Assembly: GCA_036873755.1 (NCBI GenBank)
Contig: JAVTVY010018702.1
Span: 1 to 64,000 of the forward strand
Direction of reading: 5' to 3'
Source: Hanleya hanleyi
Taxonomy: Eukaryota; Mollusca; Polyplacophora; Lepidopleurida; Hanleyidae
Length of the DNA stretch: 64,000 nt
The position numbers were made by a program, and so were the translations under genes. Each line of letters starts with the position of its first letter. Within the stretch, counting starts at the first letter, position 1. Under the pieces are notes generated by a model. It worked only from the letters and a program-made list of their open reading frames with translations, searched no databases and was not told the origin of the DNA. Of this stretch, positions 10,491 through 53,080 are shown piece by piece.

Positions 10491-12352
10491 AATTATATCT
10501 GACTGTGATTGATGTGTGCTCATGTTATTTTTTTTATCATATGATACGTTGCCTTATTTCCAATGCACACGAACAAATTAACGTCGAAAAAATAGTCAAA
10601 GAAAATTTGGTTTTGTGTCCCCAGCTCAGTAATTATTGATGGTCGCGAAATCTGTACGAGATACAACCCGATCAAGATTTCAGTCTTGACATAGCAGTTC
10701 ATGACATTGTGTCGTGTACTTCTGACGATGCAACCAAGTTTGCGGACAACGGGGGCTATATTGAATCAATTATGGCGTATGTTTTAACGTCGCATACATT
10801 TTTAGAGGAAATTAAAAAAAAATAGCCAAATTAGAGGAAATTAACAGAAATTAGCCATCCTCCTTAAAATCAGGGTTATCTGCATCCAGCCTTTGACTAG
10901 GAAAGAACCCTTTATTTTGTGAAGATGGCTGGTTGCTGATGTAAGCTTGCTATTTGAGACTAAATGTATTTTTATAGAAATTGTTTCGCTAGAAGCAGGT
11001 CTTTCATTCTGCCGTCAGTAATCCCAACGGGTGCCTTTGAGAATTTGCAGATCAGTTGAAATTTCGGGCCGTTTCAAATGTTGATATGTGGGGAATGACT
11101 GCAAACATTCACATAGTGAATGTAGGCATATGGGGTTAAATAATTGGAATAACCGCTCTGTCGATTGATTAACTGTATTGATTGGAGTCACATACTCTTA
11201 TAGAAAGGACTGTCCATTCATTGCCCTTTGAGTATTGACATCGATCACATTGATGACATAGACCTGAATGTTAGACAATTACTGTTAACGATCATATAAA
11301 ACCAATTTAGGTATGAAGTTTACAATCAAGTTTCGAAATATGGGGTCTCTATACGTAACCACCTCATGCTTTGTATGAAACGTACTTTGGGGAAACGATA
11401 AATAGCCGGTTTACCTCAAAAAAAAAATAAAAAAAATACAACAAAAATACGACAAAAACGCCAGCATTTTCTAGAAATGTCGCGATATCTTTCCGAGGTC
11501 AAATTACAAAATTTGTGTAAAAACGTTTGCCTGGTGATTCAAAATCCACCCCCACTATTAGTGTTTTAGTATAGGTTTGCCTGTTCGTCAATCCCAGTTC
11601 CTTTGAGGAAATAAATATATTGTTTAAACCAACTCCGTTCAGATAGTGGAAATGATTATGCGAGGTTGAAATGATTATAGACTCGTCACGCTAGAGGGGT
11701 CCGGGGGCGTCCCCACCACCCCGTCTCAGAAAATTTTCCCGTGATATGAGCATTTTCAGAGGGGTTTTTTTCAGATACTTATTGGAGTACTTTCTATACT
11801 AACAAAGGCGTCTTGAGAGACAAATTTGTGGACAGAAAAATTATCGATCAATAAACAACGTGCACAATCGTTACCTTTGTAGAAAGACCCTATATAACAA
11901 GATTGGCCATTGTTGTGTTGGGCATTGCAGTCCTCTTTCAAATTGTGATTCCAAGTCTGTTCCTCTTATTTCATATGTGTTGAGAATTTGAACCACCGGT
12001 GAAACATTATATCATGTCAGTTTGGATAATCATCAAGATAAAATATCTGCCGTGTAGGGAATGGCATATTGAGGCATGTATCCGAACTATCCTGTTACAA
12101 ACATCGCGCATTGATTGGTCGAGATATCTGCCATTTATGGATTATATTTACGTCATAATACAGGTACGAATTGATCGCTGCCGGGCTAATACCAATTACA
12201 TTGAAATGACACTATCGGTATAACATTGGGCATGCGAGTTTGAATAAGTTTCTTCTCTCGTCGATAGTTAATGTTCTCCAGGTCTATATGCCTCTGTCGT
12301 CTCTTCGATCATCCTATAGGGTAATCCCGGCGCGGTATATTGGTGATAGAAA
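10491..12352. other. No gene recognised; upstream of the host gene
   Basis: Unique DNA without recognisable coding segments. The final few hundred bases lie upstream of the exon-1 ATG and may hold its promoter and 5' UTR, but no clear core promoter element could be assigned. Confidence 0.4.
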
Positions 12353-13634
12353 ATGATTTTCATTGGGTTTAATTGCATATTTGTGATATTCTTGAGCAGT
12401 ATTTTCTGGGTGAATGGTTCGACTACATCAAGAAACATTGGATCATACTCGTCTCCGACATCCGAACCAATACCAGAGACCATACTAGAGACCAGTTCGC
12501 TCGCCGAACCCCAACCAGGATTAACACCAGACAGTACATCAGAGGGGTCTCTCGAGCCAACGTCGGAGCCAGAAAGTACGGTAGAGACCGGTTCTGTTGT
12601 GGAACCGGAGACACACCCAGAAACAAATGTCACAGCAGAACCTGTATCTGAGGTGTTCTCTGAGCCAACGTCGGAGCCAGAGGGGACAGTGGAACCAGGA
12701 TCCAGCGTGGAACCGGAGACAGAACCAGAAACGAACGTTGCAGCAGAGCCTGTATCTGAAGTGTTCTCTGAGCCAACGTCGGAGCCAGAGGGGACAGTGG
12801 AACCAGGATCCAGCGTGGAACCGGAGACAGAACCAGAAACGAACGTTGCAGCGGAGCCTGTATCTGAAGTGTTCTCTGAGCCAACGTCGAATCCAGAGGG
12901 GACAGTGGAACCAGGATCCAGCGTGGAGCCGGAGACAGAACCAGAAACGAACGTTGCAGCGGAGCCTGTATCTGAAGTGTTCTCTGAGCCAACGTCGAAG
13001 CCAGAGGGGACAGTGGAACCAGGATCCAGCGTGGAGCCGGAGACAGAACCAGAAACGAACGTTGCAGCGGAGCCTGTATCTGAAGTGTTCTCTGAGCCAA
13101 CGTCGAAGCCAGAGGGGACAGTGGAACCAGGATCCAATGTGGAACCGGAGACAGAACCAGAAACGAACGTTGCAGCGGAGCCTGTATCTGAAATGTTCTC
13201 TGTGCCAACGTCGAAGCCAGAGGGGACAGTGGAACCAGGATCCAATGTGGAACCGGAGACAGAACCAGAAACGAACGTTGCAGCGGAGCCTGTATCTGAA
13301 GTGTTCTCTGAGCCAACGTCGAAGCCAGAGGGGTCAGTGGAACCAGGATCTAGCGTGGAACCGGAGACAGAACCAGAAACGAACGTTGCAGCAGTGCCTG
13401 TATCTGAAGTGTTCTCTGAGCCAACGTCGGAGCCACAGGGGACGGTGGAAACAGGATCCAATGTGGAACCGGCGTCAGAACCAGAAACGAACGGCACAGC
13501 AGAGCCTATCTCCGAAAGTGTAGCGGAGCCCACCATGCAACCGGAACCGGCGAACATCCCTCAGTCGGAGACCAGGCCCTCCTCGGTGGAGATACTGGTA
13601 CCACCATCAGTCCTTGTGTTCGGCATCATATCAG
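12353..13634 (+). CDS. Host gene exon 1: signal peptide and 36-residue repeat stalk of a DUF4239 membrane protein
   Basis: The ATG opens with a classic hydrophobic signal peptide (residues 1-22, core FVIFLSSIFW). A Ser/Thr/Pro/Glu-rich spacer follows, then nine 36-residue repeats (residues 72-395; 12566-13537) of the pattern EPEGTVEPGSSVEPETEPET followed by NVAAEPVSEVFSEPTS. Lys and Cys are almost absent from the repeats, as in secreted mucin-like or acidic stalks. The exon ends in the first half of a transmembrane helix (VLVFGIIS) at tcag|gtcagt, leaving one base of a codon. Exon 2 supplies the other two bases and continues the helix. The open frame runs on to 13801 in the intron, but that tail is not repeat-like. 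The long antisense ORF is a composition shadow. The start is chosen because the signal peptide begins there. Exon chain is inference from phase and topology; no transcript is available. Confidence 0.82.
12566..13537 (+). repeat. 108-bp coding tandem repeat, nine units
   Basis: Nine in-frame 108-bp units encode 36 residues each. The inner six are nearly identical while the first and last two have diverged, the usual pattern of unequal exchange in an expanding coding minisatellite. Variation is mostly at single residues such as E/N/K before PEG and S/N in GS(S/N)VEP. Confidence 0.95.
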
Positions 13635-14239
13635 GTCAGTGTTTTCTCAAAAATAGTTCACATACGACATTAGCACAAATAAATAAACACTTTGGAAGTA
13701 TCAGGTTAAACACTGTCTTGAATCAAATTGAACACGACAATGACTCAAAACTACATGACACTTTGACAGTGTATACTTTAACACTTCTGTTCTTCATATG
13801 AATATTCACGGTGATCTGGTATCTAGTCCCTAATCCTGAATTATTTGATCATATATACATGGTCGTTTAGCTCGTTTCCGAGACTCAGTGTGCAGGTGAC
13901 CAGAAGACTTGGTTTGTCGATGTACTTGTAGTTATCGATGAATCTCGAACAATAAATTTTCAATAAAATTGGGGTTCCATGCATGCAGTCCTCCGTGTCA
14001 CGTGACCTTGATTAGAATCGTCCCTCCTTGCGCATGTTCTACTGGAGCACCACTGGGTTATTTTCTACAATAATACTTTCCAGATAGTCATAAAATAGAA
14101 GACCTAGTTTTAGAGTGACAACAATTTCTCTAGTTTAAGTACGCATATCTGTGTTTCACCTGAGGACATGTAGAATGCAGTTCATCGTCCAGAAGTAAAG
14201 AAATAAAATGGTTGGCTTCACAGTCGTCCATCAACCTGT

Positions 14240-34158: not shown

Positions 34159-34412
34159 TAACCCGAGAAGGCCTTGCCAGAGACGTAAGTGTAGTGACCG
34201 GGAAGATAACAGTCTTGGGACGAGACTGTATCTTTATCCAACGGTCCTCGGCTGGTAGAACTATCTGTTTCTGAGTGTCTAAGACCGCCCCGATGTACTG
34301 CCGTCGCTGTGCCGGCTCCAATTCCGACTTCTCCGGATGTGGAATGAACCCAGATGCTGGCACCTGTGACTCCTATATGATTCTATGTTAATTGCCCTGA
34401 GATTGTAGAATT

Positions 34413-34957
34413 ACAAGCGTCTAGTCCGTCATTCATAATCCAGCCGTCGTCCATTAGAGAATATCCGCGTCCATAATCCAAAGACCTATTCCATTTCCAT
34501 ATAACAGTATTAGCACCAAATTCAAAAAGACAAAAGTATACATAAACATAGGCTTGTTTCCTGCAAGAGAGAAGCGGTCAACAGTTTTCAATGATGCCGG
34601 CAAGACATCATGATGTTCCAAAATATCAAATCCGTATCGCTGATCAGTATTCTTAATCCATAATATTCGTTATAGAGTCGTCATCTAAAAATGATGTACC
34701 TCAGTCACGCTTTGATTGTGACCGTTCATATGAGTACCATGAGGATCTTGAAGTACATGGGTTCATACGGCCCCTAGCCCCGGGTTAATCGAAATTAGAC
34801 ACAAGTTATGAAACGTAGCGCCATAGATCTTGCACGCTACGTTCGTATTTTGCTATCAGCATGCGATATGTATCGCCAAATTTGAGAAACTTTGAGTGGA
34901 GGCGCTTGATGGAATAGCCCTGTTTTATAAGTTTCTGCAACAATGTTTTGTCATGAC
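34413..34957 (-). pseudogene. Reverse transcriptase tail family, copy 2, inserted in the DIRS RT
   Basis: The - strand encodes KTLLQKLIKQGYSIKRLHSKF and FGDTYRMLIAKYERSVQDLW, homologous to the + strand tail at 23570-23680, followed by the shared 3' region ending agacgcttg (34413). The 5' truncation lies near HDKT, about 170 bp downstream of that in copy 1. The insertion splits the DIRS RT just after the FTRI segment. Confidence 0.75.
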
Positions 34958-36492: not shown

Positions 36493-36960
36493 GCCGGAGT
36501 TTACATCCGGGGACTTACATCCGGGTTCTTTAGCTGTGTGTTCCATACGGGTTCACACATTGATGGGAACAGCCGGGTAGTTTAGGATTGACCTATATCC
36601 GGGTCCTCTAGCAATACCTGTAGTGTGTAGCATTACATACGGGTTCTTGTACATCCGGGTTCACACGGTGATGGGAACAGCCGGGTAGTTTAGAATTGCC
36701 CTATATCCGGGTCCTCTAGCAATATCTGTAGTGTGTAGCATTACATACGGGTTCTTGTACATCCGGGTTCTTGTACATCCGGGGTCTGTCAGGGTGGTGT
36801 ATAAAAGTGGGGATTTTCATGGAATGGCTTCATTCATTGCCCTGCCGATCGGAGCTACCTGACCAGTCTAAGCCAGCCTGAGCCTACCTGAGCAGTCACC
36901 AGCCTACCTGAGGAGTGACCTGACCACCCTACCAGTGGAGCCTGAAGCCAGACCGATAGC
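36493..36960 (+). repeat. Polinton left terminal inverted repeat with promoter and leader
   Basis: Starts 'ccggagtttacatccgggg' abruptly after DIRS sequence and matches the reverse complement of 52450-52985. It contains two ~115-bp internal units ('gatgggaacagccgggtagt', 'tatatccgggtcctctagca', 'tgtagtgtgtagcattacat') and short 'ttgtacatccgggttc' repeats, then the TATA box and a leader with 'gcctacctgagcag' words up to the polymerase ATG. The left copy lacks the outermost ~100 bp present at the right end. Confidence 0.85.
36799..36807 (+). promoter_or_regulatory. TATA box in the left TIR
   Basis: GTATAAAAG followed by 'tggggattttcatgg'; identical boxes lie at 41216-41224 (+) and 52592-52600 (-), each within a copy of the TIR. 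It stands about 155 bp upstream of the polymerase ATG. Confidence 0.8.
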
Positions 36961-39900
36961 ATGAGACGTGGAGAAGATTTTCCAGAGGATCCAGGAGCGC
37001 CTCCGGCTGAAGTCTTACCCGAAGACGAGCGTGTGAGTGCGTTGTACCATCGTCACTGGAACACGATACGTCGTTGTTTCCACCGTCACCGTCGCCTGTT
37101 GGATTTGTATAATTTTCGGTTGGAGGACCTCACGCATCTTCCTATTTACGCCGAGAACATTTTTTGCAGATTAGGTGACAGCCTTCAAATTGAATGTGAC
37201 ATTTGGGTATATCTTACAGCACAAAGAGACGGACCAACTGCGGTATTTTTACCCCAGTAATAATTCCTATGTGTTTGACCAGCCGGTCACGGTGATGGAT
37301 GCTATTTCTCTGGAGCCACTCATCGACCAACTGACTACGTTGGATCCATTGGTATGGTCCCGGTTGCAACGGCCCAACACCAAATGGACTGTAGAAATGG
37401 TGACGAACGTCACATTTTTCGTCACCAAATTGAGAGATCACCCCATCGGCGCTCCTGTTATTCTTCCACCATGGCTGGCCCGTCGAAAAGGGCTGTATGC
37501 GTTAACGGGAGGCAACCATGGGCCCTACACAGACCGGAAATGTCTGTTTCGGTGTTTGGCCGTTCATTTGGACCAGTGTAATCCTCGGACTTGTCATAGA
37601 AATGCAACACTGTATTGGAAAGAGTATCTACAGGCGCAAGACATTGACCCGCGGCAGTTCCGGGGGAGTCCTATTCAAGTATTTGGATGTCGTGGAAACA
37701 CAGTTCCACGTGAATATCTTTGTGTACCGTTTACTACCGAAGGAGGGGGAGGAGGATACATTTGTGGCTGAATTGGTTCATCGCTCAACAGAACGGTATG
37801 CCTCTACGATGAAAGTCAATGTCTTCGACAACGGAGGGGGGAGTCATTTTTCCCTGATCCACGATATGAGCCTGTACGCGCAATCCTACAGTTGTTCTCA
37901 ATGCCATCGGGTGTTTGACCGTTCCTCCAACTTACATCAGCACGAGAAGATTTGTGGCAACGCTGTGAAACGCAAATTTTCTGGTGGAGTGTACCATAAC
38001 ACGCCTACTATTTTCGGAGTCGGAGATGCAGGACATTCAACCGGAGGCTGTACCCTTACCCAAGCCGTATGCGGAGAAATTGAAGTTGCGCTTCCTACAA
38101 TACCTAGGCCAGTTACCTGTGCTCGGCTTCAATTCGGGGCGATACGACCTGAACATGGTGAAGGAATTTCTCTACCCTTACTTGGCCCAGTCCGATACCA
38201 TCAAGTCCGTCATCAAAAAGATCAACAACCACATGGCCCTTACCACCACATCACTCCATTTCCTGGATGTACGCAACTACTTAGCTCCAAATTACAGCTA
38301 CGATCAGTGGGTAAAGGCCTATGATTGTGCACAAACCAAAGGGAGGTTCCCTTATACCTATATGTCAACGCTCGAGGAAACACAGTTACCACCCAGGGAC
38401 GCTTTCTTCGACGATCTGAAGCAGGTGGAATGTTCAGAAGACACGTACCGGGAACTACAGCAAGTATGGAACGACCAACATATGCAGACCTTGCGAGATT
38501 TCCTGGTGTATTATAACAACTTAGATGTGGTTCCATTCCTCGAAGCGGCCGAGAAAATGGCCCAACTCTTTCGGGATCAAATGCACGTGGACATATTGAA
38601 GGAGTGCTTGAGTTTACCGGGTCTCGCGCTTTGCCATCTTTTTCAAGATTGTTCCACGTACTTTTCACTCATTCACCAAAAAGACGAGGACATGTATGAA
38701 GGACGTCACCACCCTTCCAGGTGGGAAACCCTGTGCCAAAAGCATTGGATTCGACGCCAATGCCCTGTATCTGTGGTCTCTCGCTCAACCTATGCCCAGT
38801 GGTTATTATACATGCTGGTTGGCGGAAGGTCAGCATTTCCGACCTGAACGTACACCGTACAAGCATCTAGCTGACCAGTGGTTGGACTGGCAAGCCGATC
38901 GACGGGAAATTTCTATACGACACCAAACCAACGCCACAGAGAAGCGGATAGGAGATCGTCGACTCCCCGTCGATGGGTTTGCTATACGCCACAATAAACC
39001 TACCGTATTCCAATTTTACGGGTGTTACTGGCACGGCCACCAATGCCATTTCAGCGCTGGCCGCTTCAACGAACGACGTGGAAAATTGGCGGAAGAACTA
39101 CGGGCAGAAGTGGTCGAGAACGGGGATTACGTGAAAGAGATGGGGTACCAGCTCATCGAAATGTGGGAGTGTGAATTTCACACCATGTGCCAGGCCCTCC
39201 CATACTTACGCCGCTTCCTTAAAGCGCGAGAGTACCCTCTCAGTCGCCGGCGACTCCTGACCCAGCCACAGCTTCTCCACGCCATTCATTCCGGGGACCT
39301 CTACGGGTTTGTTGAATGCGATCTGCATGTTCCCGACAACCTCAAGCCACTATTCGCCCAGTGCCCACCCATCTTTAAAAACACGCTGGTGAGTCGGGAT
39401 GACATTGGAGACACCATGGGCGCCTATGCTGAGCAACACGAATGCCTGCCTCGTCCTCGTCGGATGCTGATCGGGAGCATGTGGGGAGAAAAAATCTTGC
39501 TGGGTACCCCTCTGCTACAGTGGTACATGAGCCACGGCCTCGAAGTGACGCGAGTGTACCAAGTCCTTCAGTACGTACCGAACGACTGTTTTGCGGGGCA
39601 TGCCGACATCGTGATGTCTGCCCGTCGCCAAGGCGATAAAAATCCCAGTCAGGCCATTATCGGGGAATCCTGGAAACTCACGGGCAATGGCTACTATGGA
39701 AAAACGGTCACCAACCAAGACAAGCATGTCAACGTGAATATCTGCACTACCAAACAAGCGCGCAAAAAGATCAACTCGCATCTGTTTCGGTCCGTGGACG
39801 TCATCGATGATGACACGTATGAAGTCAGTTCAGCCAAGAAGACCATTCGTTACAACCTCCCGCTCCAAATTGGATGTATGGTATACCAGGTGGCCAAGCT

Positions 39901-40391
39901 GAGGATGCTGCAATTTTTATATTTATATAATGGAGATGGACACAGACACTGCCTACATGGCCGTCTCTAATGCGGATTGGGAGTCACTCGTCCAACCCGA
40001 ATTACGCGCGCAGTATGAGGCGGAACGGGACCAGTGGCTACCTCGACGCGATCATTACCAGTACGACAAGCGGACGCCGGGTCTCTTCAAGTTAGAGTGG
40101 AGTGGAGATGCCATGATCGCCCTATCGTCCAAGACGTATTATTGTTACGGAGGTGATGGAAACAACAAGTTTAGATGTAAAGGCGCCAACCAACGTGACC
40201 CTGCCATCGACAAAGCCCTCTACCTGGGCGTGCTGCAAAGCCAGCCCAGTGCGAGTGGCACTAACAGAGGATTCCGCGTCGTCGACCACCAGATGCGAAC
40301 CTACATCCAGAAACGAGATGCCTTCACATTTTTCTATCCGAAACGGTGGAGCCTTCCCGATGGAGTCAGTATCACCTACTTGGACTTGTGA
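36961..40391 (+). pseudogene. POLB: Protein-primed DNA polymerase B of a Polinton/Maverick, frameshifted
   Basis: The reading moves through six overlapping frames: 36961-37260, 37175-37771, 37518 onward, 37984-38847, 38696-39970 and 39930-40391, with breaks near 37.17, 37.68, 38.02, 38.70 and 39.94 kb. Recognisable parts in order are the N-terminal FVTKLRDHPIGAP region (37.4 kb), TDRKCLFRCLAVHL, a Zn-binding CSQCHRVF..HQHEKIC (37.9 kb), exonuclease GFNSGRYDLN (38.13 kb), motif A FDANALYLWSL (38.75 kb), motif B KLTGNGYYGK (39.68 kb) and motif C MDTDTAYMA (39.93 kb). The C-terminal TYFYPK-type end is present. This is the family-B, protein-primed polymerase shared by Polintons, adintoviruses and bidnaviruses. 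About 1,140 codons in total, a normal length. Catalytic motifs are individually preserved; the breaks could be decay or sequencing indels. Confidence 0.9.
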
Positions 40392-40463
40392 AACTATGAC
40401 TTTTGATAGTACGAGTTAAACTAGTACTGTAAAATTTAACGTACACCTGTAAAAAGTCGGGAT

Positions 40464-40850
40464 TACAAGCGTCTAGACCGTCATTCATAATTCAGCCGTC
40501 GTCCATTAGAGAATATCCGCGTCCATAATCCAAAGATCTATTCCATATTCCATATAACAGTATTAGCACCAAATTCAAAAGACAATCATAGTATACATAA
40601 ACATAGGCTTGTTTCCTGCAAGAGAGAAGCGGTCAACAGTTTTCAATGATGCCGGCAAGACATCATGATGTTCCAAAAATATCAAATCCGTATCGCTGAT
40701 CAGTATTCTTAATCCATAATATTCGTTGTGAAGTCGTCATCTAAAGAATGATGTATCTCAGTCACGCTTTGATTGTGACTGTTCATATGAGTACCATGAG
40801 GATCTTGAAGTACATGGGTTCATACGGCCCCTAGCCCCGGGTTAAGCGGA
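40464..40850 (-). repeat. Reverse transcriptase tail family, copy 3 (3' UTR only)
   Basis: Reverse-complement copy of 23690-24083 and close match to 34413-34800. It begins at the shared 3' end (agacgcttg complement) and is truncated at 'ccgcttaacccggggct', so it holds no coding sequence. It lies between the polymerase stop and the third TIR copy. Confidence 0.85.
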
Positions 40851-40854
40851 TAGT

Positions 40855-41235
40855 TCAAGGTCATATTGAATGATAGGAATGCATGTACTGACCTGTTCAT
40901 CCGGAGTTTACATCCGGGGACTTACATCCGGGTCCTTTAGCTGTGTGTTCCATACGGGTTCACACGGGTTCACACATTGATGGGAACTGCCGGGTAGTTT
41001 AGGATTGACCTATATCCGGGTCCTCTAGCAATACCTGTAGTGTGTAGCATTACATACGGGTTCTTGTACATCCGGGTTCACACGGTGATGGGAACAGCCG
41101 GGTAGTTTAGAATTGCCCTATATGCGGGTCCTCTAGCAATACCTGTAGTGTGTAGCATTACCTACGGTTTCTTGTACATCCGGGTTCTTGTACATCTGGG
41201 GTCTGTCAGGGTGATGTATAAAAGTGGGGATTTTC
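40855..41235 (+). repeat. Third, internal copy of the Polinton TIR
   Basis: Same orientation as the left TIR and includes the outer part missing there ('gaatgataggaatgcatgta', 'ctgacctgttcatccggagt'). It runs through both ~115-bp units to the TATA box (41216-41224) and 'gtggggattttcatgg', then stops at 41239. The leader and a gene are replaced by a tRNA-like sequence. Confidence 0.85.
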
Positions 41236-41314
41236 ATGGCCGAGTGGTCTAAGGCGCCGGTTAACAGTGCTGGTCTGCGCAATGCAGGTCGTGGGTTCGA
41301 ATCCTACTCCTGAC
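41236..41314 (+). pseudogene. tRNA-Leu-like sequence lacking its 5' acceptor strand
   Basis: Contains a type II-style D arm (ggccgagtggtctaaggc), a short variable arm (tctgcgcaatgcagg), a canonical T arm (gtgggttcgaatcctac) and a 3' strand tcctgac, followed by a T5 run (41317-41321) as in Pol III terminators. The seven bases expected at the 5' end do not pair with tcctgac. The anticodon loop (taacagt) lacks the invariant U33 in the simplest fold. The best family resemblance is tRNA-Leu. A/B-box-like sequences remain, so Pol III transcription is conceivable, but a functional tRNA is unlikely. Confidence 0.7.
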
Positions 41315-41553: not shown

Positions 41554-41973
41554 TTAAGACAACCAGAGAAATAGGGCATGCACATTAAAACGAGAGGCAG
41601 CCCAGTCGTACACTAAGACATCACGGTCTTCGGCTTGAAAATAATCATCAAACATCTGTACAATCGTTTGCATAGAATGTCCTCTACTCCGGTGAGTGAG
41701 ATAAAACACACAGTACTGTCCACATCCACTACTCAAGGGTCCTTGTAATCTTTTAGTATTCCAACGCCAGACTGTAGTAGATTCGTCCATGAACTGGGTC
41801 AAATCGGGATGCACGGGTGCAAGTCCGTAGGAATCAAAGTATTCTCCTTGGCCCAGGGCGTCCACGTATACAGCCACCCAATGTTCACCCGGTCGAGTAC
41901 CTGGGTCTGTATTCAGGATGTAGGCCGCAGGGGTGGGTGTGGTGGAAAAGACATTACGTGGAAACACACCTCG
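41554..41973 (-). CDS. PRO: Adenain-type cysteine protease of the Polinton, N-terminally truncated
   Basis: The frame shows the C48/adenain fold signature: GEHWVAVYVD carrying the catalytic His, YFDSYGL carrying the acidic residue, and CGQYCVFYL carrying the Gln and nucleophilic Cys. In adenoviruses, Polintons and adintoviruses this enzyme matures capsid proteins. The recognisable homology starts at GVFPRN, about 25-30 residues into a normal adenain, and directly follows the end of the pVI-like reading frame in another frame. A small deletion has therefore probably removed the pVI C-terminus and the protease start. No stop codon interrupts the visible catalytic domain. Confidence 0.85.
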   Translation of the reverse strand, partial: RGVFPRNVFSTTPTPAAYILNTDPGTRPGEHWVAVYVDALGQGEYFDSYGLAPVHPDLTQFMDESTTVWRWNTKRLQGPLSSGCGQYCVFYLTHRSRGHSMQTIVQMFDDYFQAEDRDVLVYDWAASRFNVHALFLWLS

Positions 41974-42193
41974 AAATCACCGGCGACTTGCAGTCCACTG
42001 CGTACCGCTTGTTTGCCCACCGCTTTTACTCCACGTGCCACCAAGGGCAAGAACGTTTTGACAATGCTTCCCAGTATGTTTCCCAGCCCGTGACCTCGTT
42101 GCATGCACCGCTAAAGACCTGACCTCCACCTCCCGTTTGTTTCTTGTAATAGTCTGCATAGCTGGCCGTATGGCACTGGTAAGGCACGTACAT
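41913..42193 (-). pseudogene. Adenovirus pVI/pX-like minor virion protein, frameshifted
   Basis: The ATG at 42193 overlaps the stop of the preceding gene (TAATG). The first frame contains YADYYKKQTGGGGQVFSGA. Near 42105 the reading shifts to QRGHGLGNILGSIVKTFLP and GVKAVGKQAVRSGLQVAGDF. A Gly-rich start, then Q-R-G-x-G-L-G and an amphipathic helix, is the hallmark of the pVI-like protein encoded beside the protease in many Polintons; in adenovirus pVI is membrane-lytic and a protease cofactor. The C-terminus is fused to the protease frame by an apparent deletion. Confidence 0.7.
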
Positions 42194-42905
42194 TATACGA
42201 AGTGGGGAGAACGTGCTTGTCGGAAATGAAGTGTCAGCACCACTTTCCCTCGTTCGAATGCCACCGGGCGTCCCGTGTCATCTCTTATATCCACCGTGAT
42301 CGTGTTGATATCGGTGTGTCGTACGGGTAGGTAGAGTATGTGGTTGAAACTCTGGGTGACTTGATCTCCATACTTCTTTCTAATGGGGACCACCCGTAAC
42401 AGAGATGTGTTGACATCTCCCACAATGTGGTTGTCGACTACGTCCGAGTAGACGTAGAGTTCGTACATACCCACTTTCATATCCATCGCAATGTCGCCTT
42501 TGTCGGTGGTTGGGCCCGGGTAGACGGAATAAGGGAGACCTAACATTTGCTGTAGGGTCGGACTGAGTTTGACACTCACGTTGGGGCTGAGAAGGATACA
42601 GGGCTTGTCGTTGTGTGTGTTGTAATCGAACTCCACATGATTGTTGAAGGGATAGGATTTGATGGGTTTTGAATTATTCGTGACCACCCGTAGAGACTTA
42701 CAATGCATCAGCGTTCTCAAGCCATCCATGAATTGGGGTATCGTATTGGCCTTCGGGTAGGGTCAGCCGGGTTACTTGCCTTCGTAGGCCACCTCGTACC
42801 ACACGTCCTTGTCTCGCACGTTGTACCACCAGTTAGTGTATTGCATATCCACGAGTCCGCATTCCCATCGTCCAGGTAAATGCAACGGTTGCGGTAACTG
42901 GGTCA
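42193..42905 (-). pseudogene. Polinton minor capsid (penton-like) protein, disrupted
   Basis: Upstream part, about 42905-42778: DNTLAKYVTQLPQPLHLPGR and ECGLVDMQYTNWWYNV, the N-terminal jelly-roll strands typical of this family. Two close frame changes follow near 42775 and 42730. The main open stretch 42729-42193 includes VSVKLSPTLQQMLGLPYSVY, YELYVYSDVVDNHIVGDV and DTGRPVAFERGKVVLTLHFR, a very conserved C-terminal block. The residues before DNTLAKY are missing and replaced by the tail of the upstream gene. The assignment as minor rather than major capsid rests on size and the DNTLxxFxTxL/GKVxxTLHFR motifs. Confidence 0.7.
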
Positions 42906-43655
42906 CGTACTTGGCCAGGGTGTTGTCAAGTAGGCTTCCCTAGTAGGGTCCCAGGTCTTGGGGGCTTGTAGCTGCCGTCGTGATCGGCGCGGTGTGTCTG
43001 CATAGGGATGAAAAGAACGTCCCCGCCGGGAGGGTGTTTTGGGAGGGGTCTGCGGTTGCCACTCACGTTCCCAGGTATGGGGGAGTCGAGAGGGTACTTG
43101 CATCCAGTTCCAGCGTTCACGATTTCCCACCAATTCTCGAGGGACGTGTGTGTCTTTCAACGGTCTAGCAAAGGCTTCCCATCCCGGTGGAGAACGGGAA
43201 CGTACCGTATCGTTGATCAGATCGGTGATACGAGACCCTGGGATCACTTGGTTTCGAATAAGCAGCTGCCCGTGATCGGTCCAACCCATATCAGGTTTCT
43301 GTTTCACCCGGTCCAACAATAAACGAGCCTTGGTCTTGAATGCCTTAGGGACACTGGCCAACACTTCATCTTCGAGCTGCGGTGAGGCGGAGGAAGTTGG
43401 TGGTGGTGGTGGTAGTGGTTTGGGTAGTGTGGGTAGTGTGGGTGTTGAACCACCCCTATATTGATCCATAAACGTCTTGTACCGGTTCAGCGTCTATGGG
43501 TAAAGTTTAATTTTCTCGTGATCGGGCAGTCGGCGTTGAAGTATGTTATTCATCTCTTCATCGAGGGACTGCAGTTGTTGTACCGTGGCAGGGACAGGGT
43601 AGGGTGATTGCAAACTTTGTAACAGTCGAGGTTCGACCAGCATCATTTTTTTCAT
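42903..43655 (-). pseudogene. Conserved Polinton structural-type protein with one in-frame stop
   Basis: The start MKKMMLVEPRLLQSL at 43655 is in frame with the long open stretch 43469-42903 but a TAG at 43494-43496 interrupts it. After a Pro-rich linker comes KAFKTKARLLLDRVKQKPDM and IPGSRITDLINDTVRSRSPP, then a basic Arg-rich C-terminus. A start KMxLVDPRLL, then IPGSxIxDLxNDxLR, recurs in Polinton and adintovirus genomes beside capsid genes; its role is not established. The single stop (one base from CAG) is the only break. Confidence 0.75.
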
Positions 43656-45283: not shown

Positions 45284-45294
45284 GAATTTATATC
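45284..45294 (-). promoter_or_regulatory. TATA-like box upstream of the membrane-protein gene
   Basis: On the - strand GGATATAAATT lies about 40-50 bp before the ATG at 45244, overlapping the end of the integrase frame. Confidence 0.5.
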
Positions 45295-46445
45295 CGTTTC
45301 ATGTCACGGGCAGAGACCCAAGAATTAAACGAACTGGGCCAACCTTGCCATTTGACGAAATGATAGGGGATGCCACGTCGACGTTCCGTTTTCAAAATCT
45401 CCTCCACCGTGTAGTAGTCTTTCTGTGGTTTTACGACCGGTTGTAATTCTGCCTCGTAAAACGTGCCTTGCAGTGTTTCTCCTTGTAGATCTTCCAGTCG
45501 ATGGACGTGTGGGGTTCGGGGACTATGGCGAGGAATGACAAAATGCTCATCACTCCAGTTGGGCAAGTAACTTTTCTCATATTGCCCTTTGACTTTACTG
45601 ATCCGTATCACATCTCCGCGTTTGTAACGGGGTGAAGACCCTTCTTCAGGAGGTGAGTAGAGCGTACGGCGCACTTGATGTTCGTTGCGTTCCGTCACAT
45701 CGATGGGCGCCCGTTGGATACTGCGATGATAGGCTCGATTGTTCCCTCGAACCAGTTGAGGTAGCACATCGATGTACCGTCGGGTGTTTTTGGCTGTAAA
45801 ATACTTGTACATCCGACCTTTCAAGGTCCGATTGAACCGTTCCACCACAGAGGCTTTGGTTTCGTTGTACGTATGGAAGAAAAACACCTTCTGTTTCTTG
45901 AGAAAGGCTTGAAAGTGTCGATTGAGAAATTCTGTGCCTTCATCTGTTTGCAAATAGAGAGGTTTGCGACCTGTCTTAAAAATCTGCCGGAACGCCTGTA
46001 CAAGATTCTCCCCTGTTTTGGTCCGGATGGGTACCACCCATGCGACCTTGGATAAAATATCGATACAGGTCAACATGTACCGATGTCCATCATTGTGGGT
46101 AGCAAATCGACTCATATCGACCAAATCTGCCTGCCATTGTGCATCTATGCCTCCTACGATGACTCGGTTACGGCGAAAATGCCGTCTGGCTGCTCGATGT
46201 AAGCTATAAGTGTCTTGGGTTTTTAACCATTCGCGAACTTCAGCTCGACTAATGCCTTGGGACTGCGCAGCTCGAGCGAGCGCTCCCACAGCTCTATAAG
46301 CGGCTGGACTGTCTGGACTGTAATACAATTCCGTTAACACCGTATCCACATGTGTTGTACCCTTATCCTTTCGGGTCTCCCTACGGGTCGCCGTAGGGGT
46401 TTCCCTACGGGTCTCCCGCCGGGTGTCCCACCGGGTTCGCTTCAT
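45288..46445 (-). CDS. INT: Polinton integrase (retroviral type, rve fold) with C-terminal chromodomain
   Basis: Intact 385-residue frame. An Arg/Thr-rich N-terminus precedes a helical region, then the rve catalytic core with Asp107 (QADLVDM), Asp168 (LQTDEGTEF) and Glu202 (ASVVERFNRTLKG), a DD33E spacing. An SH3-like region (YKRGDVIRI, about 290) and a chromodomain (YTVEEILK..YHFVKWQGWP, about 343-385) complete the protein. It inserts Polinton DNA with short target duplications; the chromodomain may bias insertion to marked chromatin. It is the longest undamaged gene of the element. A TATA box lies about 30 bp upstream. Confidence 0.95.
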   Translation of the reverse strand: MKRTRWDTRRETRRETPTATRRETRKDKGTTHVDTVLTELYYSPDSPAAYRAVGALARAAQSQGISRAEVREWLKTQDTYSLHRAARRHFRRNRVIVGGIDAQWQADLVDMSRFATHNDGHRYMLTCIDILSKVAWVVPIRTKTGENLVQAFRQIFKTGRKPLYLQTDEGTEFLNRHFQAFLKKQKVFFFHTYNETKASVVERFNRTLKGRMYKYFTAKNTRRYIDVLPQLVRGNNRAYHRSIQRAPIDVTERNEHQVRRTLYSPPEEGSSPRYKRGDVIRISKVKGQYEKSYLPNWSDEHFVIPRHSPRTPHVHRLEDLQGETLQGTFYEAELQPVVKPQKDYYTVEEILKTERRRGIPYHFVKWQGWPSSFNSWVSARDMKRI

Positions 46446-46460
46446 GATGCGACTGACGCT

Positions 46461-47159
46461 CTAGACTGTGTGGCCCTTATATAGTACCTCATCGACAATG
46501 GGGACTACTTGTTCCAAAACCGTCCATAGATCGGGGTCCAGGGTAAAACCACCGTCGTTCAGACAGAGAAGTCGAGCGAAAAAGGAACCACGGAAAATGT
46601 AAACGTCGTCACACAGGTGAATGCTATCGCCGTCCAGGTCACCCAACAACACCCGTTTCAAAGTAGTCCATCCTTCCGGTGACAAAGAGACGTGCGCTTT
46701 GGGTTCAGGCGTACACCAACACCTAAGTCCGCTATCGATGAGGTCCACTCGTTTGGAGTACAACAATAGGGTGCAGCCAGGTGTAAGCCTCCGGGTAGCC
46801 ACAGTCCCTTCTTTCACCTCGGGATGCAGTAAGTCATCCACCTCGGGGAGTACATCTTTCAGTGCCATCCATAAGGGTGGACAGAGTGTGATATGGGTAC
46901 CTCCACACTGTTCCAACCGGGGAAAAAGGGAATCCTCTCCAGCAGTGCGTATGTGCACACCGACTTCCACGTGCATGAAATCCCTTTCGGGCTCTTTTCC
47001 CTGTAACAACCGTGTCAATAGAGTCCAGCCTGATAGCGATAACAAAATCTTCACCTTCTGCGGTGCGTCTTGGACCAGCTCCAGGTGATCGTCATTGACG
47101 ATGAGGTAGACGTCGGACGTCAGTTGGAATAACGCAAGCTCTGTTGCGTTCGCTGCCAT
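46461..47159 (-). CDS. Polinton protein with duplicated PC4-like modules
   Basis: Intact 232-residue frame. The motif 'strand, x-L-x-x-x-x-W-x-x-L, then an acidic helix' occurs four times: LLSLSGWTLLTRLL, ITLCPPLWMALKDVLPEVD, VSLSPEGWTTLKRVLL and FTLDPDLWTVLEQVVPIVD. Together with VGVHIRT before the second, this resembles the PC4/p15 fold (IR..PT..GxxLxxxxWxxLxxxxxxID), a single-strand DNA-binding transcription cofactor. I read it as two tandem, divergent PC4 domains, each dimer-like in itself. Residue matches are weak, so a different repeated fold is possible. On the - strand two TATA-like boxes lie upstream (about 47197 and 47309). Confidence 0.5.
   Translation of the reverse strand: MAANATELALFQLTSDVYLIVNDDHLELVQDAPQKVKILLSLSGWTLLTRLLQGKEPERDFMHVEVGVHIRTAGEDSLFPRLEQCGGTHITLCPPLWMALKDVLPEVDDLLHPEVKEGTVATRRLTPGCTLLLYSKRVDLIDSGLRCWCTPEPKAHVSLSPEGWTTLKRVLLGDLDGDSIHLCDDVYIFRGSFFARLLCLNDGGFTLDPDLWTVLEQVVPIVDEVLYKGHTV
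46474..46484 (-). promoter_or_regulatory. TATA box of the integrase gene
   Basis: On the - strand ACTATATAAGG stands about 30 bp upstream of the 46445 ATG and lies within the last codons of the upstream PC4-like gene. Confidence 0.6.
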
Positions 47160-48840: not shown

Positions 48841-49380
48841 TTACAACGATTGGAGTAGTTGTCTCTTGGCGCATAGGGGACATCTCAGCGGGACGAGTGC
48901 ACACGGGACGGGTATGCAACATGGTGGACTTGCTCTCCCTGCAAGTTTGGTGATACAGCAGGCACATAACGCTTGGTGTCCACAGGGGAAAAAGGTGAAT
49001 TTGCCGTAGTGGGTAAAACATTTGACACATGGTAATTGCTTTACCACCCCCAGTGTTGTGTCCCTCTGCAGCCTTGTTATTTCCGTGCAGTGGTCGTCAA
49101 GATATTGCTGCTGTTGCTCCTGCTGCGGCACTTTCGTCAAATGACCCTCTACCGTCTGTTCTTTGTCTTATTTTACTTCTTCTTCTCTCAACAGATTGTC
49201 TATAATCTCCTCCAGCCAACCCTCGTTGGTACTATTGTCTTGTGTAGTCACTTGGATGTCGATGAATTCACCTGTTGTGTCGTCAAGATATTGCTGGTGT
49301 TGTTGCGAAACTTCGATATCGATCAATTCACCCGTTGCTTCGTCAAGATATTGCATGTTGCTTCGTCTAGCATCAGTCAT
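48841..49380 (-). pseudogene. RING-finger protein gene with one in-frame stop
   Basis: The ATG at 49380 (TDARRSNMQYLDEATGE) sits at the same place relative to the central inverted repeat as the ATG of the divergent + gene, so I choose it over the longer frame to 49515. Two QYLDxxTGExIDI repeats follow, then a Gln-rich linker and a C-terminal RING: CVKC, FFPCGHQALCACC and RCPLC. This is a C3HC4-type arrangement like the C-terminal RING of inhibitor-of-apoptosis proteins, a ubiquitin-ligase module. A TAA near 49168-49170 interrupts the frame between the repeats and the Gln linker. No BIR domain is visible. Confidence 0.75.
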
Positions 49381-49384
49381 GAAG

Positions 49385-50600
49385 TGGTTGGCATGAATGT
49401 GTGTAGCAGACGACCGACAGCCCGCTTTTTTATTCTCTACCGTAAAAAACCCGGCTGAGGGCGCGCGGACGTCAGCGAAATCTGTCTGGACATCATGGCC
49501 AGAAAGAAAAGACAAAATGATATGTGCTTTCTACAAGATTTGGAAGCGGGCTAAATTTTTAATAAACACGAGTTGAGATCTAAAACACTTTAAATTTATA
49601 CCTTGGCATGTTATCGTGTAACCCTGAAAATTTCATAGAGCTAACGGCTGCATAAATATATATATTTTTTCATTTTCCACGTTTCAAAAGCCCAATTTCA
49701 CCTGCACGACTGTGTTAAAAGTACGGTAAACTTGAAATAAATGGACTTACTGCTCTTAAAACACTTTAGGTGTCGCCCCTTACGACGTTAGTGTGTCATT
49801 GTAAAAAAATTCATAAAGTTTATAGACGAAGAAATGTGATTTTTTTTATTTCCAACACTCTAGTGTGAAAACAACCATTGACACCTATAGCTGTATTTGG
49901 TGCCGTACTCTAAACAGTTCCCATCACGCAGCGAACACTACACTGCATGTACAAGGTCCCGTGTGTACACGGATGTAAACAAGTCCCCGGATGAATGAAT
50001 AGATACATGCATTCCTATCATTCAAAATAATCGGTACATGTAGTGTTCACGTGATCGCTGCGCGATGGAAACTGTTTAGAGTATGGGACCGAATGCAGCT
50101 ATGGGTGTCAATGGTTGTTTTCACACTAGAGGGCTGGAAACAAAAAATTCACATTTCTCCATCTATAAACTTCCAGAATTTTTTTAGAATGACACACTAA
50201 CGTCGTAAGGGAGACACCTAAAGTGTTTTAAGAGCCGTAAGTCCATTTACTTCAAGTTTACCGTACTTTTAACACAGTCGTACAGGTGAAATTGGGCCTT
50301 TGAAACGTGGAAAATGAAGAAAAAATATATTTATGCAGCCGTTAGCTCTATGAAATTTTCAGGGTTACACGATAACATGCCAAGGTATAAATTTAAAGTT
50401 GTTTTAGATCTCAACTCGTGTTTATTAAAAATTTAGCCCGCTTCCAAATCTTGCAGAAAGCACAGATCATTTTGTCTTTCTTTCTGGCCATGATGTCTAG
50501 ACAGATTTCGCTGACGTCCGCGCGCCCTCAGCCGGGTTCTCTACGGTCGAGAATAAAAAGCGGGCTGTCGGTCGTCTGCTACACATATTCATGCCAACCA
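49385..50600. repeat. Central inverted repeat, ~570-bp arms, carrying divergent promoters
   Basis: 49385-49960 matches the reverse complement of 50035-50600: 'ataacatgccaaggtataaa', 'ttaaaacactttaggtgtc', 'ctctagtgtgaaaacaacca' and 'gcgaacactacactgcatgt' all recur. Arms are about 90% identical. Each arm ends in 'gaataaaaagcgggctgtcg' (TATA-like AATAAAAAG) and 'cattcatgccaaccac', leading to an ATG on either side (49380, - and 50605, +). The 70-bp centre contains 'ccccggatgaatgaatagat' and 'catgcattcctatcattcaa', which also occur in the outer TIR copies. No ORF fills the arms. Confidence 0.9.
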
Positions 50601-50604
50601 CATC

Positions 50605-50965
50605 ATGGCTGCTAGACGTGCACTGTTCGACGCAATGAACACGACTGATGAAGCTTTGGCGAGGGAACTAAGCCATAACGCTACACAGGATGAAGCTGTG
50701 AGGGACCAAGCCCTGGCGCAGGGACTACAAGATGCTAGACTAATGCCCCCGATCAATCGAGTACTCACTCGGGACGGAGAATTGAGGGAACTGGCCAGAT
50801 ATAGAGATAGCCGACACTCTGGATGCGGACGACGATGATATTACAGACATAGATGAAGACGAAGAAGATGTACAGACGCCACATCGTCCACAAATAGGGT
50901 GGTTAAACACACGCAGCATGGCTCCACCAGGGCCAACCCATACTCTCGAAAGAGGAACTTTCTAA
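50605..50965 (+). pseudogene. Small acidic Polinton protein, frameshifted
   Basis: The ATG at 50605 directly follows the right arm of the central inverted repeat. Its frame begins MAARRALFDAMNTTDEALAR and EAVRDQALAQGLQDARLM, a helical region. Near 50805 reading shifts to an Asp/Glu-rich stretch (DADDDDITDIDEDEEDV) and ends LERGTF-stop near 50965. No domain recognised. The first residues resemble the start of the RING protein (M-x-A-R-R), perhaps because both starts arose with the duplicated promoter. Confidence 0.5.
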
Positions 50966-51109: not shown

Positions 51110-51280
51110 TGTCACCATGATGGTAGAATGAACATAGAATGAACATAGAATGAACATAGAATGTAGGAATACGGTAATGTCTGAATGTTCAATATTTAGT
51201 CAACAAGACTTGTTTGAAATCATGTCTTTCTTGCCAGGTCTGAATGTTCAATATTTAGCCAACAAGACTTGTTTGAACGC
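51110..51280. repeat. Two small duplications
   Basis: 'agaatgaacat' recurs four times at 51125-51165. 'tctgaatgttcaatatttag' with 'caacaagacttgtttgaa' occurs at 51180 and 51239, the second copy containing the CARD-gene stop region. An AATAAA-type poly(A) signal on the - strand lies near 51038. Confidence 0.8.
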
Positions 51281-52446
51281 TTCCGTGTCTTTTTGCCCCT
51301 CGTGCACGAATAGGAAGGTCGCAATCTGCTCACGGGGAATTCTCGGTGGACAGGCCGCTTCCAATGCCTCCGCGATTTCCGTCTCGTTGATGTTGTGTAA
51401 CGCCTGAGTCATCAGCGCGTCTGACGGTGCCGCCAAAGGATGCGGGCCATCCAGACACGTATGCATGTCTAACGATCCGACACAGCGTGCACATTGTTGG
51501 ATACGCTCGCCTTCAATGCGAGGTTTAAGATGATTCAGGAAGGTTTCAATGTACTTTTTGTAGATATACTCAGACAGCTGGTCATGCAGAGCTTCAGAAA
51601 TTTCGTGTGCGAGGTGCTGAAGCTTCCGCCACGCAGGTATTTGCAGGATGACTCCCTTGGGTAAGGGAATACGCGTAGTATCTTTCTTCAACTTCCATTT
51701 ACGAATATGTACCAGCAGCATGTCGTTGAACATAGAACAGGTGAGGAAGACATCGTCTCCACAACAAAATTCATGTTCGATGTGGTTCTCAATAACCGCC
51801 TCGACGACTTGACTTTGTATCTCTGTACTCTTTTCCATTGCTCAAGCGTCAAGGCAATATGCTTAGGTGGTTTATCGTCCCAGGCTGATGCATTAAAGTG
51901 CACTTGCTCATATTTCACGGTTACAGTTAAATAGGGCGTGAGCTCCCAACTGGTGATCTTGGTAGCCTGGTAGGCCTGCTGGATGATGTCATTCATCTGC
52001 TCCACAGACATAGGGAGTAGCATCTCTTCCTCCGCTTGCTGAGGCTCTTGCTGAGGCATTATTAAAGGTGTTAGTTGGGGACGTTTGGCTGGTGGATAGG
52101 ACTCTTCCGGGTCTTCCTGGGCACGTTTGCTACCTGTACTCTCTTCGGGGATGTCTATGAGTAAGGTGTGTTCCTCGGGTTGAAGTTGAGAGGCTATTCC
52201 CGCATTCCCCGTCTCTCTCAGCGCCTCCAAGAAGGCCTGAAATGCTAAAGGACCTCGGCGTGGTAGAGTGTCCATGAGGACTCTGTTTCGTGCCGTATTG
52301 GTATTCTGTGCCATGATGTCTTCTTCCATGTATGTAATGATTACGTTTCTCACCAGAAGGAGATCACATAGTTCGGCCACACTCATCATCTCACTAATGA
52401 TCTGGACACGGTGCTGCATCAGCTTAGCTCGGTCAGATGAGTCCAT
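51248..52446 (-). pseudogene. CARD domain fused to PC4-like modules, one frameshift
   Basis: The first frame (52446-51688) opens with a full CARD: HRVQIISEMMSVAELCDLLL, the NVIITYMEEDI helix, and LPRRGPLAFQAFLEALRETG (about residues 1-90). CARDs are death-fold adaptors of caspase and RIG-I/MAVS-type pathways in animals. A Pro/Gln/Glu-rich linker with a KRAQ..PPAKRPQ nuclear-signal-like stretch follows, then a PC4-like half (LTVTVKYEQVHFN, HIALTLEQWKRV). Near 51830 reading shifts to the frame ending at 51248, giving a second PC4-like unit: VFLTCSMFNDMLLVHIRKWK, PKGVILQIPAWRKLQHL. The C-terminal ~120 residues hold a CARC..MHTC Cys cluster and are unrecognised. It starts exactly at the end of the right TIR leader. 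CARD call is strong, PC4 moderate. Confidence 0.82.
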
Positions 52447-52449
52447 GGC

Positions 52450-53080
52450 TGTTGGCTCAGGTAGGTGCTGTTCAGGCAGGTCTTGAGTAGGCTGGTCACT
52501 CCTCAGGTAGGCTCAGGCTGGCTCAGGGTGGTCAGGTAGCTCCGGTCAAGTAGGCAGGCCAATAAATGAAGCCATACCATGAAAATCCCCACTTTTATAC
52601 ACCACCCTGACAGACCCCGGATGTACAAGAACCCGGATGTACAAGAACCCGTATGTAATGCTACACACTACAGGTATTGCTGGAGGACCCGGATATAGGT
52701 CAATCCTAAAATACCCGGTTGTAAACCCCGGATGAACAGGTCAGTACATGCATTCCTATCATTCAATATGACCTTGAACTATCACGTGATCTCCCCATGG
52801 TGGAAAAACCCCAAATTCAAGTCAGTACATGCATCCTATAAATGGTATTGCTAGAGGACCCGGATATAGGTCAATCCTAAACCACCCGGCTGTTCCCATC
52901 AATGTGTGAACCCGTGTGAACCCGTACGGAACACACAGCTAAAGGACCCGGATATAAGTCCCCGGATGTAAACTCCGGATGAACAGGTCAGTACATGCAT
53001 TCCTATCATTCAATATGACCTTGAACTATCACGTGGTCTCCCCGTGATGAAAAACACCAAATACAAGTCAGTACATGCAT
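52450..53080 (-). repeat. Polinton right terminal inverted repeat with promoter and leader
   Basis: 52450-52985 mirrors 36493-36960, including the leader words 'gcctacctgaggagtgacc', the TATA region, 'ttgtacatccgggttc' repeats and the ~115-bp unit. The segment 'atgaacaggtcagtacatgc' plus 'cctatcattcaatatgacct' and 'tgaactatcacgtg' occurs twice (52732-52800 and 52975-53035), so the right end has an internal duplication. Homology stops near 53080, where DIRS-type sequence begins. I could not fix the outer end to the base or find a 5-6 bp target duplication. Confidence 0.8.
52592..52600 (-). promoter_or_regulatory. TATA box in the right TIR
   Basis: GTATAAAAG on the - strand within 'ccccacttttatacaccacc', mirror image of 36799-36807, about 150 bp upstream of the CARD-gene ATG. 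Confidence 0.8.

What the first reader, a model, noticed from the sequence alone, without database searches (positions are those of the whole stretch)
51248..52446. CARD domain fused to PC4-like DNA-binding modules in a Polinton
The N-terminus has a textbook CARD (LPRRGPLAFQAFLEALRETG and preceding helices) and the rest has PC4-like units with LLVHIRKWK and PKGVILQIPAWRKL. I know of no described protein joining a death-fold adaptor domain to a PC4-type ssDNA-binding or transcription-cofactor fold. The gene sits at the end of a virus-like element under a promoter shared with its polymerase, so an early-expressed inhibitor or decoy of caspase or MAVS-like signalling that also acts in the nucleus is a reasonable hypothesis.
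Basis: partly seen in the sequence, partly recalled or inferred. Interest (0 to 1): 0.9.

Follow-up and report, generated by a model that had tools for sequence, protein, structure and literature searches.

The report
Virus-like element's CARD–PC4 fusion protein

Summary
The CARD and a PC4 domain are really there, on the minus strand at the right end of a Polinton-type element. In the window they lie in two overlapping frames (51688-52446 and 51248-51838), so this copy is broken; codon bias changes frame at the overlap, which points to one decayed gene. The same genome lists 152 matches, the window included. In 20 of 28 loci examined (18 of 20 picked for long frames, 2 of 8 not picked) CARD, linker, PC4-like units and tail form one open frame of about 400 aa, and Pfam finds CARD and PC4 in 20 of 20 of these proteins. 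The CARD is of the CED-3/caspase-9 type and keeps the three arginines with which procaspase-9 binds Apaf-1. The second PC4 unit is firm, the first only probable. The gene starts at the inner edge of the terminal repeat, with the same TATA promoter as the polymerase-like gene at the other end. I favour an early, DNA-bound decoy of apoptosome-type CARD assembly: the fusion is well supported, the function inferred. Limited literature searches showed no such protein.

The parts
51688..52446 (-). ORF1, 252 aa: CARD, linker and first PC4-like unit; the part after about residue 209 reads out of the coding frame
52180..52425 (-). CARD domain (ORF1 residues 8-89)
   Evidence: Pfam PF00619 E 6.1e-15; PDB CED-3 E 2.4e-8, caspase-9, RAIDD
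52081..52128 (-). Bipartite nuclear-localisation-like stretch in the linker (KR-x12-KR)
   Evidence: sequence; pattern KR-x(8-14)-K[KR] in 16 of 20 one-frame relatives; the motif's meaning is recalled
51820..51966 (-). First PC4-like unit (ORF1 residues 161-209), probable only
   Evidence: shuffle tests 0-34 of 5000 depending on profile; no Pfam PC4 hit; natural-copy profile finds no PC4 in PDB
51248..51838 (-). ORF2, 196 aa: second PC4 unit and C-terminal tail
51617..51748 (-). Second PC4 unit (ORF2 residues 31-74)
   Evidence: Pfam PF02229
51455..51493 (-). Cys-rich CxxC-x8-C stretch in the tail, possibly metal-binding
   Evidence: the three cysteines kept in 20, 18 and 19 of 20 relatives; zinc role is inference
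52446..53030 (.). Right terminal inverted repeat, reaching to the start codon of ORF1, with TATA box (minus strand, 52593-52599)
36494..36950 (.). Left terminal inverted repeat with TATA box at 36800, ending about 10 bases before the ORF at 36961
36961..40391 (+). DNA polymerase B-like gene, in several frame-broken pieces
   Evidence: ORFs; only a weak Pfam DNA_pol_B_2 hit, E 0.14, none for three other pieces
41554..41967 (-). Adenovirus-type cysteine protease
   Evidence: Pfam PF00770 E 3.6e-4, just under cut-off
45288..46445 (-). Integrase with chromodomain
   Evidence: Pfam rve E 4.7e-10, Chromo E 4.1e-6
46461..47159 (-). Second protein of the element with four PC4-like units that seem to come in two alternating types
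   Evidence: shuffle tests; no Pfam hit
48841..49140 (-). RING-finger protein of the same arm
   Evidence: Pfam zf-C3HC4_3 E 1.2e-4, below cut-off; relatives in L061, L062 and, weakly, L064

Best explanation
This is a broken copy of a real, multi-copy Polinton gene for a CARD - linker - PC4-like pair - Cys-rich tail protein of about 400 aa. Shown by sequence: the fusion, its position at the inner edge of the terminal repeat, and the promoter shared with the polymerase-like gene. Inferred: it is made early together with the polymerase and enters the nucleus; the PC4 part holds it on single-stranded or unwound viral DNA; the caspase-type CARD occupies the acidic face of an Apaf-1/CED-4-type CARD adaptor and so blocks recruitment of the initiator caspase, keeping the infected cell alive while the element replicates.
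For: CARD: E 6.1e-15; CED-3, caspase-9, RAIDD; the profile of 20 relatives adds Apaf-1. PC4: (20 of 20 one-frame relatives match both families at E up to 0.1); the six-unit window-only profile finds three PDB sequences at E up to 10, all PC4 (E 0.008-0.013). One frame: 20 of 28 loci (20 of the 28 were picked for long frames or divergence). Same history: CARD and PC4 unit 2 distances co-vary, Spearman 0.73, 0 of 2000 permutations. Procaspase-9 R13/R52/R56 align with R13/R53/R55, kept in 19, 17 and 19 of 20; [quoted passage not shown] Shared TATA promoter; terminal-repeat-like DNA upstream of the gene in 18 of 20 one-frame relatives. A CARD-only iridovirus protein is an early gene, goes to the nucleus and lowers caspase-8/-9 activity (PMC4457926, abstract and passages). 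Third codon positions differ 1.30 times as often as first/second between subfamilies, bootstrap 95% 1.09-1.54.
Against: No expression, binding or localisation data. dN/dS of 0.62 lies inside the neutral range of my simulation (medians 0.49-0.92), and the codon-position excess falls to 1.23 without CpG sites (no interval computed), so constraint is shown only weakly. The alignment to caspase-9 has a two-residue gap in the query between the R52 and R56 positions. Arginines at these sites also occur in other CARDs (NOD2 CARDa has two of the three). Unit 1 is not found as PC4 by Pfam or by a natural-copy profile. The profile of the whole protein finds PC4 in PDB only at E 0.42. Of the PC4 residues that I recall as ssDNA-binding only some seem kept in unit 2. 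The relative with the least similar CARD (L028, 52% to the window's) is under the Pfam CARD cut-off (20.9 of 23.9 bits).
Confidence: 0.5

Rival explanations
1. The CARD is a self-assembly module, not an immune decoy: CARD-CARD contacts polymerise the protein so that its PC4 parts coat displaced single strands cooperatively, as a replication-centre scaffold.
For: A second protein of the element already has four PC4-like units, so PC4 pairs look like a native replication or transcription module; the gene shares the promoter of the polymerase-like gene. CARDs form helical filaments (recalled).
Against: The CARD is closest to caspase prodomains and keeps the adaptor-binding arginines, which a pure oligomeriser need not.
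Confidence: 0.22
2. The protein is a death trigger rather than an inhibitor: the PC4 part senses viral single-stranded DNA and the caspase-type CARD nucleates caspase activation, excluding rival elements or having been kept by the host as a defence.
For: A DNA-binding domain joined to a CARD has the layout of a sensor; many copies are open (42 of the rows listed have stop-to-stop frames of 380 aa or more without inner stops, my count; such a frame does not by itself prove a CARD, see L005).
Against: The gene keeps the element's terminal-repeat-like upstream DNA in 18 of 20 one-frame relatives and element neighbours in 7 of 10 stretches, so no sign of host capture; a suicide gene under the polymerase's promoter would harm the element.
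Confidence: 0.1
3. The protein is a PC4-type transcription or replication cofactor in which the CARD is only a protein-protein handle with no immune role.
For: In the three copies with the most divergent CARD (L026-L028) PC4 unit 2 stays at 77-78% identity to L003 while the CARD falls to 60-67%.
Against: In L024 and L025 it is the other way round (CARD 83%, unit 2 78%); the CARD is recognised in 20 of 20 one-frame copies.
Confidence: 0.15
4. No fusion: two adjoining genes, or chance resemblance.
For: The window copy has two overlapping frames; a CARD-less PC4-pair gene exists in L061.
Against: 20 of 28 loci have one frame; both Pfam families in 20 of 20 of these; codon bias switches at the overlap; a stop lies two codons upstream of ORF2's ATG in its own frame.
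Confidence: 0.03

Closest known systems
Ranavirus (iridovirus) CARD-only protein, e.g. GIV-CARD
   Same: Virus-encoded CARD; early gene, moves to the nucleus, lowers caspase-8/-9 activity (PMC4457926, abstract and passages)
   Different: 91 aa and CARD only, no DNA-binding domain; described as similar to ICEBERG, whereas this CARD is nearest to CED-3/caspase-9; virus of a different kind
CARD prodomain of procaspase-9 / CED-3
   Same: Best sequence matches (CED-3 27 of 90 identical, caspase-9 31 of 89); the three Apaf-1-contacting arginines align
   Different: No protease domain; joined to PC4 and encoded by a mobile element
Eukaryotic PC4/p15 coactivator
   Same: Pfam PF02229 match of unit 2; the profile of the window's six units finds only PC4 chains in PDB
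   Different: Divergent unit(s) inside a larger protein; ssDNA binding untested
PC4-like proteins of phages (T5 SSB-like protein, anti-CRISPR AcrIIA22)
   Same: Mobile elements using the PC4 fold, probably for their own DNA or against host immunity (PMC8545432, passages)
   Different: Bacterial setting, no death-fold domain mentioned in the passages; AcrIIA22 is 54 aa; sequence relation not tested
P0001, a 343-aa metagenome protein
   Same: CARD 32% identical over 42% of ORF1
   Different: No PC4 found by Pfam; further CARD-like stretches instead (second BLAST stretch, the rest by eye)

Membership tests
CARD (death-fold superfamily) | Pfam PF00619 above its curated cut-off | tested here: met
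   55.4 bits against 23.9; 20 of 20 relatives at E up to 0.1, though L028 at 20.9 bits is below the cut-off
CARD (death-fold superfamily) | Six-helix death fold in three dimensions | not testable with these tools
   structure prediction switched off
PC4/p15 (unit 2) | Pfam PF02229 above its curated cut-off | tested here: inconclusive
   24.0 bits for ORF2 (cut-off 25), 26.9 for the piece; 20 of 20 relatives at E up to 0.1, best 2.1e-6, L028 18.8 bits
PC4/p15 (unit 1) | Recognised by a PC4 profile | tested here: not met
   no Pfam PC4 hit; A8 profile finds no PC4 in PDB; only shuffle tests and the A1/A3/A5 profiles speak for it
PC4/p15 | Binds single-stranded DNA as a dimer | not testable with these tools
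   no assay
Polinton/Maverick | Retroviral-type integrase | tested here: met
   rve E 4.7e-10, 40.1 bits against 32.6
Polinton/Maverick | Adenovirus-type protease | tested here: inconclusive
   PF00770 E 3.6e-4, 20.7 bits against 21.3
Polinton/Maverick | Protein-primed DNA polymerase B | tested here: inconclusive
   DNA_pol_B_2 E 0.14 in a broken gene; three other pieces no hit
Polinton/Maverick | A32-type packaging ATPase | tested here: inconclusive
   in a relative, L059:4042-4653, Pox_A32 22.9 bits against 22.8 over a short stretch; not found in the window ORFs scanned
Polinton/Maverick | Long terminal inverted repeats | tested here: met
   413 of 452 aligned bases alike
Polinton/Maverick | Major capsid protein | not tested
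   no Pfam capsid hit among the ORFs scanned, no structure search possible
Viral CARD-only decoy | CARD without other domains | tested here: not met
   PC4 in the same frame in 20 of 20 one-frame proteins

The most novel reading that the evidence does not exclude
A new class of viral effector in which a nucleic-acid-binding domain carries a caspase-type CARD onto viral DNA, so that apoptosome-type assembly is titrated or nucleated at the replication site: a direct physical link between single-stranded viral DNA and the cell-death machinery.
Probability: 0.4. Interest if true: 0.85.

Novelty: new variant of a known kind. Interest (0 to 1): 0.72.

Why it matters
Viral CARDs are known from iridoviruses and PC4-like proteins from phages, but I found no record of the two in one protein, nor of a death-fold protein in Polintons: zero papers hold 'polinton' with 'caspase recruitment domain', 'polinton' and 'maverick' with 'PC4' or with 'death domain'; the passages found in PMC11071296, a survey of adintoviruses and relatives, contain none of PC4, CARD or caspase. 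The library holds open-licence papers only, the main adintovirus paper is not in it, and the one search that could have shown CARD-PC4 fusions elsewhere returned mostly unrelated papers. If the reading holds, Polintons of animals act as viruses that manage host cell death, and the CARD gives a testable handle on whether apoptosome-type apoptosis is an antiviral defence in this host.

Tried and rejected
Relatives outside the genome: the search for homologous proteins gave only P0001 for ORF1 and nothing for ORF2 or the four-unit protein; viral contigs gave nothing in seven scans; genome contigs nothing; phages nothing for the integrase. So I know the family only from this one genome. Programmed frameshift: a search of ORF1's frame for the canonical X XXY YYZ heptamer printed none, and relatives have one frame, so I read the split as decay or an assembly indel. 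Shared frame break: some copies align from ORF2 residue 1, which I first took for an inherited break; L037 suggests it is only the other-frame reading of conserved DNA; the other such copies were not read one by one. dN/dS was dropped as evidence because the neutral simulation, made on ORF2's frame only, covers the value. PHROGs and NCBIfam gave nothing firm. Chance PC4 resemblance: among 847 six-frame pieces of the window a single-sequence PC4 profile ranks the four-unit protein first but ORF2 only fourth, behind two unrelated pieces, and does not list ORF1 in its first rows, so single-sequence scores alone are weak. A profile of the four-unit protein alone finds no PC4 in PDB. Pairwise, unit 1 against PC4 is matched by 78 of 5000 shuffles.

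Full report
WHAT IS IN THE WINDOW. The finding covers two minus-strand ORFs, not one: 52446-51688 (252 aa) and 51838-51248 (196 aa), overlapping in different frames. ORF1 begins with a CARD (Pfam E 6.1e-15). Against solved structures its best matches are CED-3 (E 2.4e-8), caspase-9 (1.6e-6 and weaker) and RAIDD (4.4e-6). ORF2 holds a PC4 domain: 24.0 bits over the whole ORF, one bit under Pfam's cut-off, 26.9 bits over the piece itself. Codon log-odds trained on 1231 codons of six other ORFs of the element are positive in ORF1's frame in the 7 windows of 90 bases down to the overlap and negative in the 7 after it. ORF2's frame is positive in the 6 windows from 51814 down, negative in a last one that runs past its stop, and before the overlap positive (+1.8) in 1 of 7. 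ORF2's frame has a stop two codons upstream of its ATG.

THE INTACT RELATIVES. After ten unanswered tries, the search of the window's own genome (2.48 Gb, 52,793 contigs, unnamed) with ORF2 gave 152 matches, the window's own included, the others 69-93% identical (150 of 4656 candidates scored, so a lower bound). I examined 55 loci. L001-L028 are the window, the seven next-best matches, and 20 that I picked for long open frames or divergence. Of these 28, 20 have CARD, unit 1 and ORF2 each covered by more than 80% in one frame: 2 of the 8 not picked and 18 of the 20 picked. Of 20 picked for short frames (L029-L048) 18 have the CARD upstream in the same order; L035 and L037 do not. Of seven more (L049-L055) 6 do; L051 does not. 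In all 52 of 55 loci carry the CARD. The one-frame proteins run 396-418 aa from the CARD's start, apart from L012 (387 aa, first ATG nine residues later). Pfam finds CARD in 20 of 20 and PC4 in 20 of 20 at E up to 0.1. Distances in the CARD and in PC4 unit 2 rise together (Spearman 0.73, 0 of 2000 permutations, 19 copies, L012 left out), so the two parts share a history.

THE SETTING. The element has an integrase with chromodomain, an adenovirus-type protease just under its cut-off and a broken polymerase-like gene. A relative, L059, also has an A32-type ATPase at its cut-off. The terminal repeats match over 413 of 452 aligned bases between 36494-36950 and 52978-52446, and a second left copy at 40849-41239 matches 53030-52577 in 364 of 391. 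The right repeat runs up to the CARD gene's start codon, the left one to about 10 bases before the ORF at 36961; both have TATAAAA. In 18 of 20 one-frame relatives terminal-repeat-like DNA lies within 1 kb upstream (not found for L026 and L027; only short matches in L028), and in 17 of 20 there is a TATAAAA: in 14 at 90-200 bases from the start, in L026 and L027 at 235 and 246, in L028 at 520; none in L007, L016 and L024. In 7 of 10 downstream stretches of 9.5 kb the four-unit protein and the integrase follow in the window's order; L061, L063 and L064 lack them. Three of the seven also reach the protease and then the polymerase on the opposite strand, a fourth the polymerase without the protease.

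HOW IT PROBABLY WORKS. The three procaspase-9 arginines that PMC3314614 calls crucial for Apaf-1 binding (passages read) align with R13, R53 and R55, present in 19, 17 and 19 of 20 relatives. This suggests a CARD with the caspase-side face, able to occupy the adaptor in place of the caspase. The linker has a bipartite basic motif in 16 of 20, which fits nuclear entry. The grouper iridovirus CARD-only protein is an early gene whose product moves into the nucleus and lowers caspase-8 and -9 activity (PMC4457926, abstract and passages), a precedent for nuclear viral CARDs. PC4-like proteins of phages include a predicted SSB-like protein and an anti-CRISPR (PMC8545432, passages). Putting these together, I favour an early protein held on viral DNA by PC4 and blocking initiator-caspase recruitment by its CARD. 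Every functional step is inference. The scaffold rival (CARD polymerising a DNA-binding protein) is nearly as economical.

CONSTRAINT. Mean dN/dS among 19 one-frame copies is 0.62 (CARD 0.59, unit 2 0.51, linker 0.73), but neutral simulations give medians of 0.49-0.92 depending on mutation bias, so this shows nothing. Codon position is a better test: between subfamilies third positions differ 1.30 times as often as first and second, bootstrap 1.09-1.54, 1.23 without CpG sites (no interval). That is mild evidence for protein-level constraint at some time; many copies are decaying in the host.

WHAT REMAINS OPEN. No relative was found outside this genome in the searches listed. The genome-wide search with the CARD alone did not complete.

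Noticed in passing
34410-34791 / 40462-40848 and 36494-36822 / 40901-41239: The left flank (372 of 381 identical) and left terminal repeat are present twice; the polymerase-like ORFs end where the second copy starts. Tandem rearrangement or haplotype misassembly.
   Followed up: partly
49374-49938 / 50051-50611: A large near-palindrome (arms about 560 bases, most blocks 89-95% alike) with a terminal-repeat-like stretch in its centre (49985-50028).
   Followed up: no
L061:3172-7292: A 95% palindrome whose centre holds two head-to-head CARD-less genes of the PC4-pair plus tail type (units 58-70% identical), one of them broken; may show the state before CARD capture, or a truncated derivative.
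   Followed up: partly
G000 contigs C3177, C28139, C25102, C50051, C18812: Two CARD-PC4 gene copies face each other 6-18 kb apart (places), as if the gene-bearing arm were present at both ends of some elements.
   Followed up: partly
46461-47159: A 232-aa protein of four PC4-like units, directly upstream of the integrase, unknown to Pfam; relatives in 7 of 10 stretches.
   Followed up: partly
48841-49140: RING-finger protein in the same arm as the CARD gene; with the CARD it would make a small cell-death or ubiquitin toolkit.
   Followed up: no
41554-43469: L057 has about 1.7 kb with further ORFs between its relatives of the 178-aa protein and the protease, the window about 0.2 kb; L059 has about 1.6 kb between the 188-aa protein and the protease, the window about 0.9 kb. 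The window copy has probably lost sequence here.
   Followed up: partly
12268-13801: Long overlapping ORFs on both strands made of short tandem peptide repeats.
   Followed up: no
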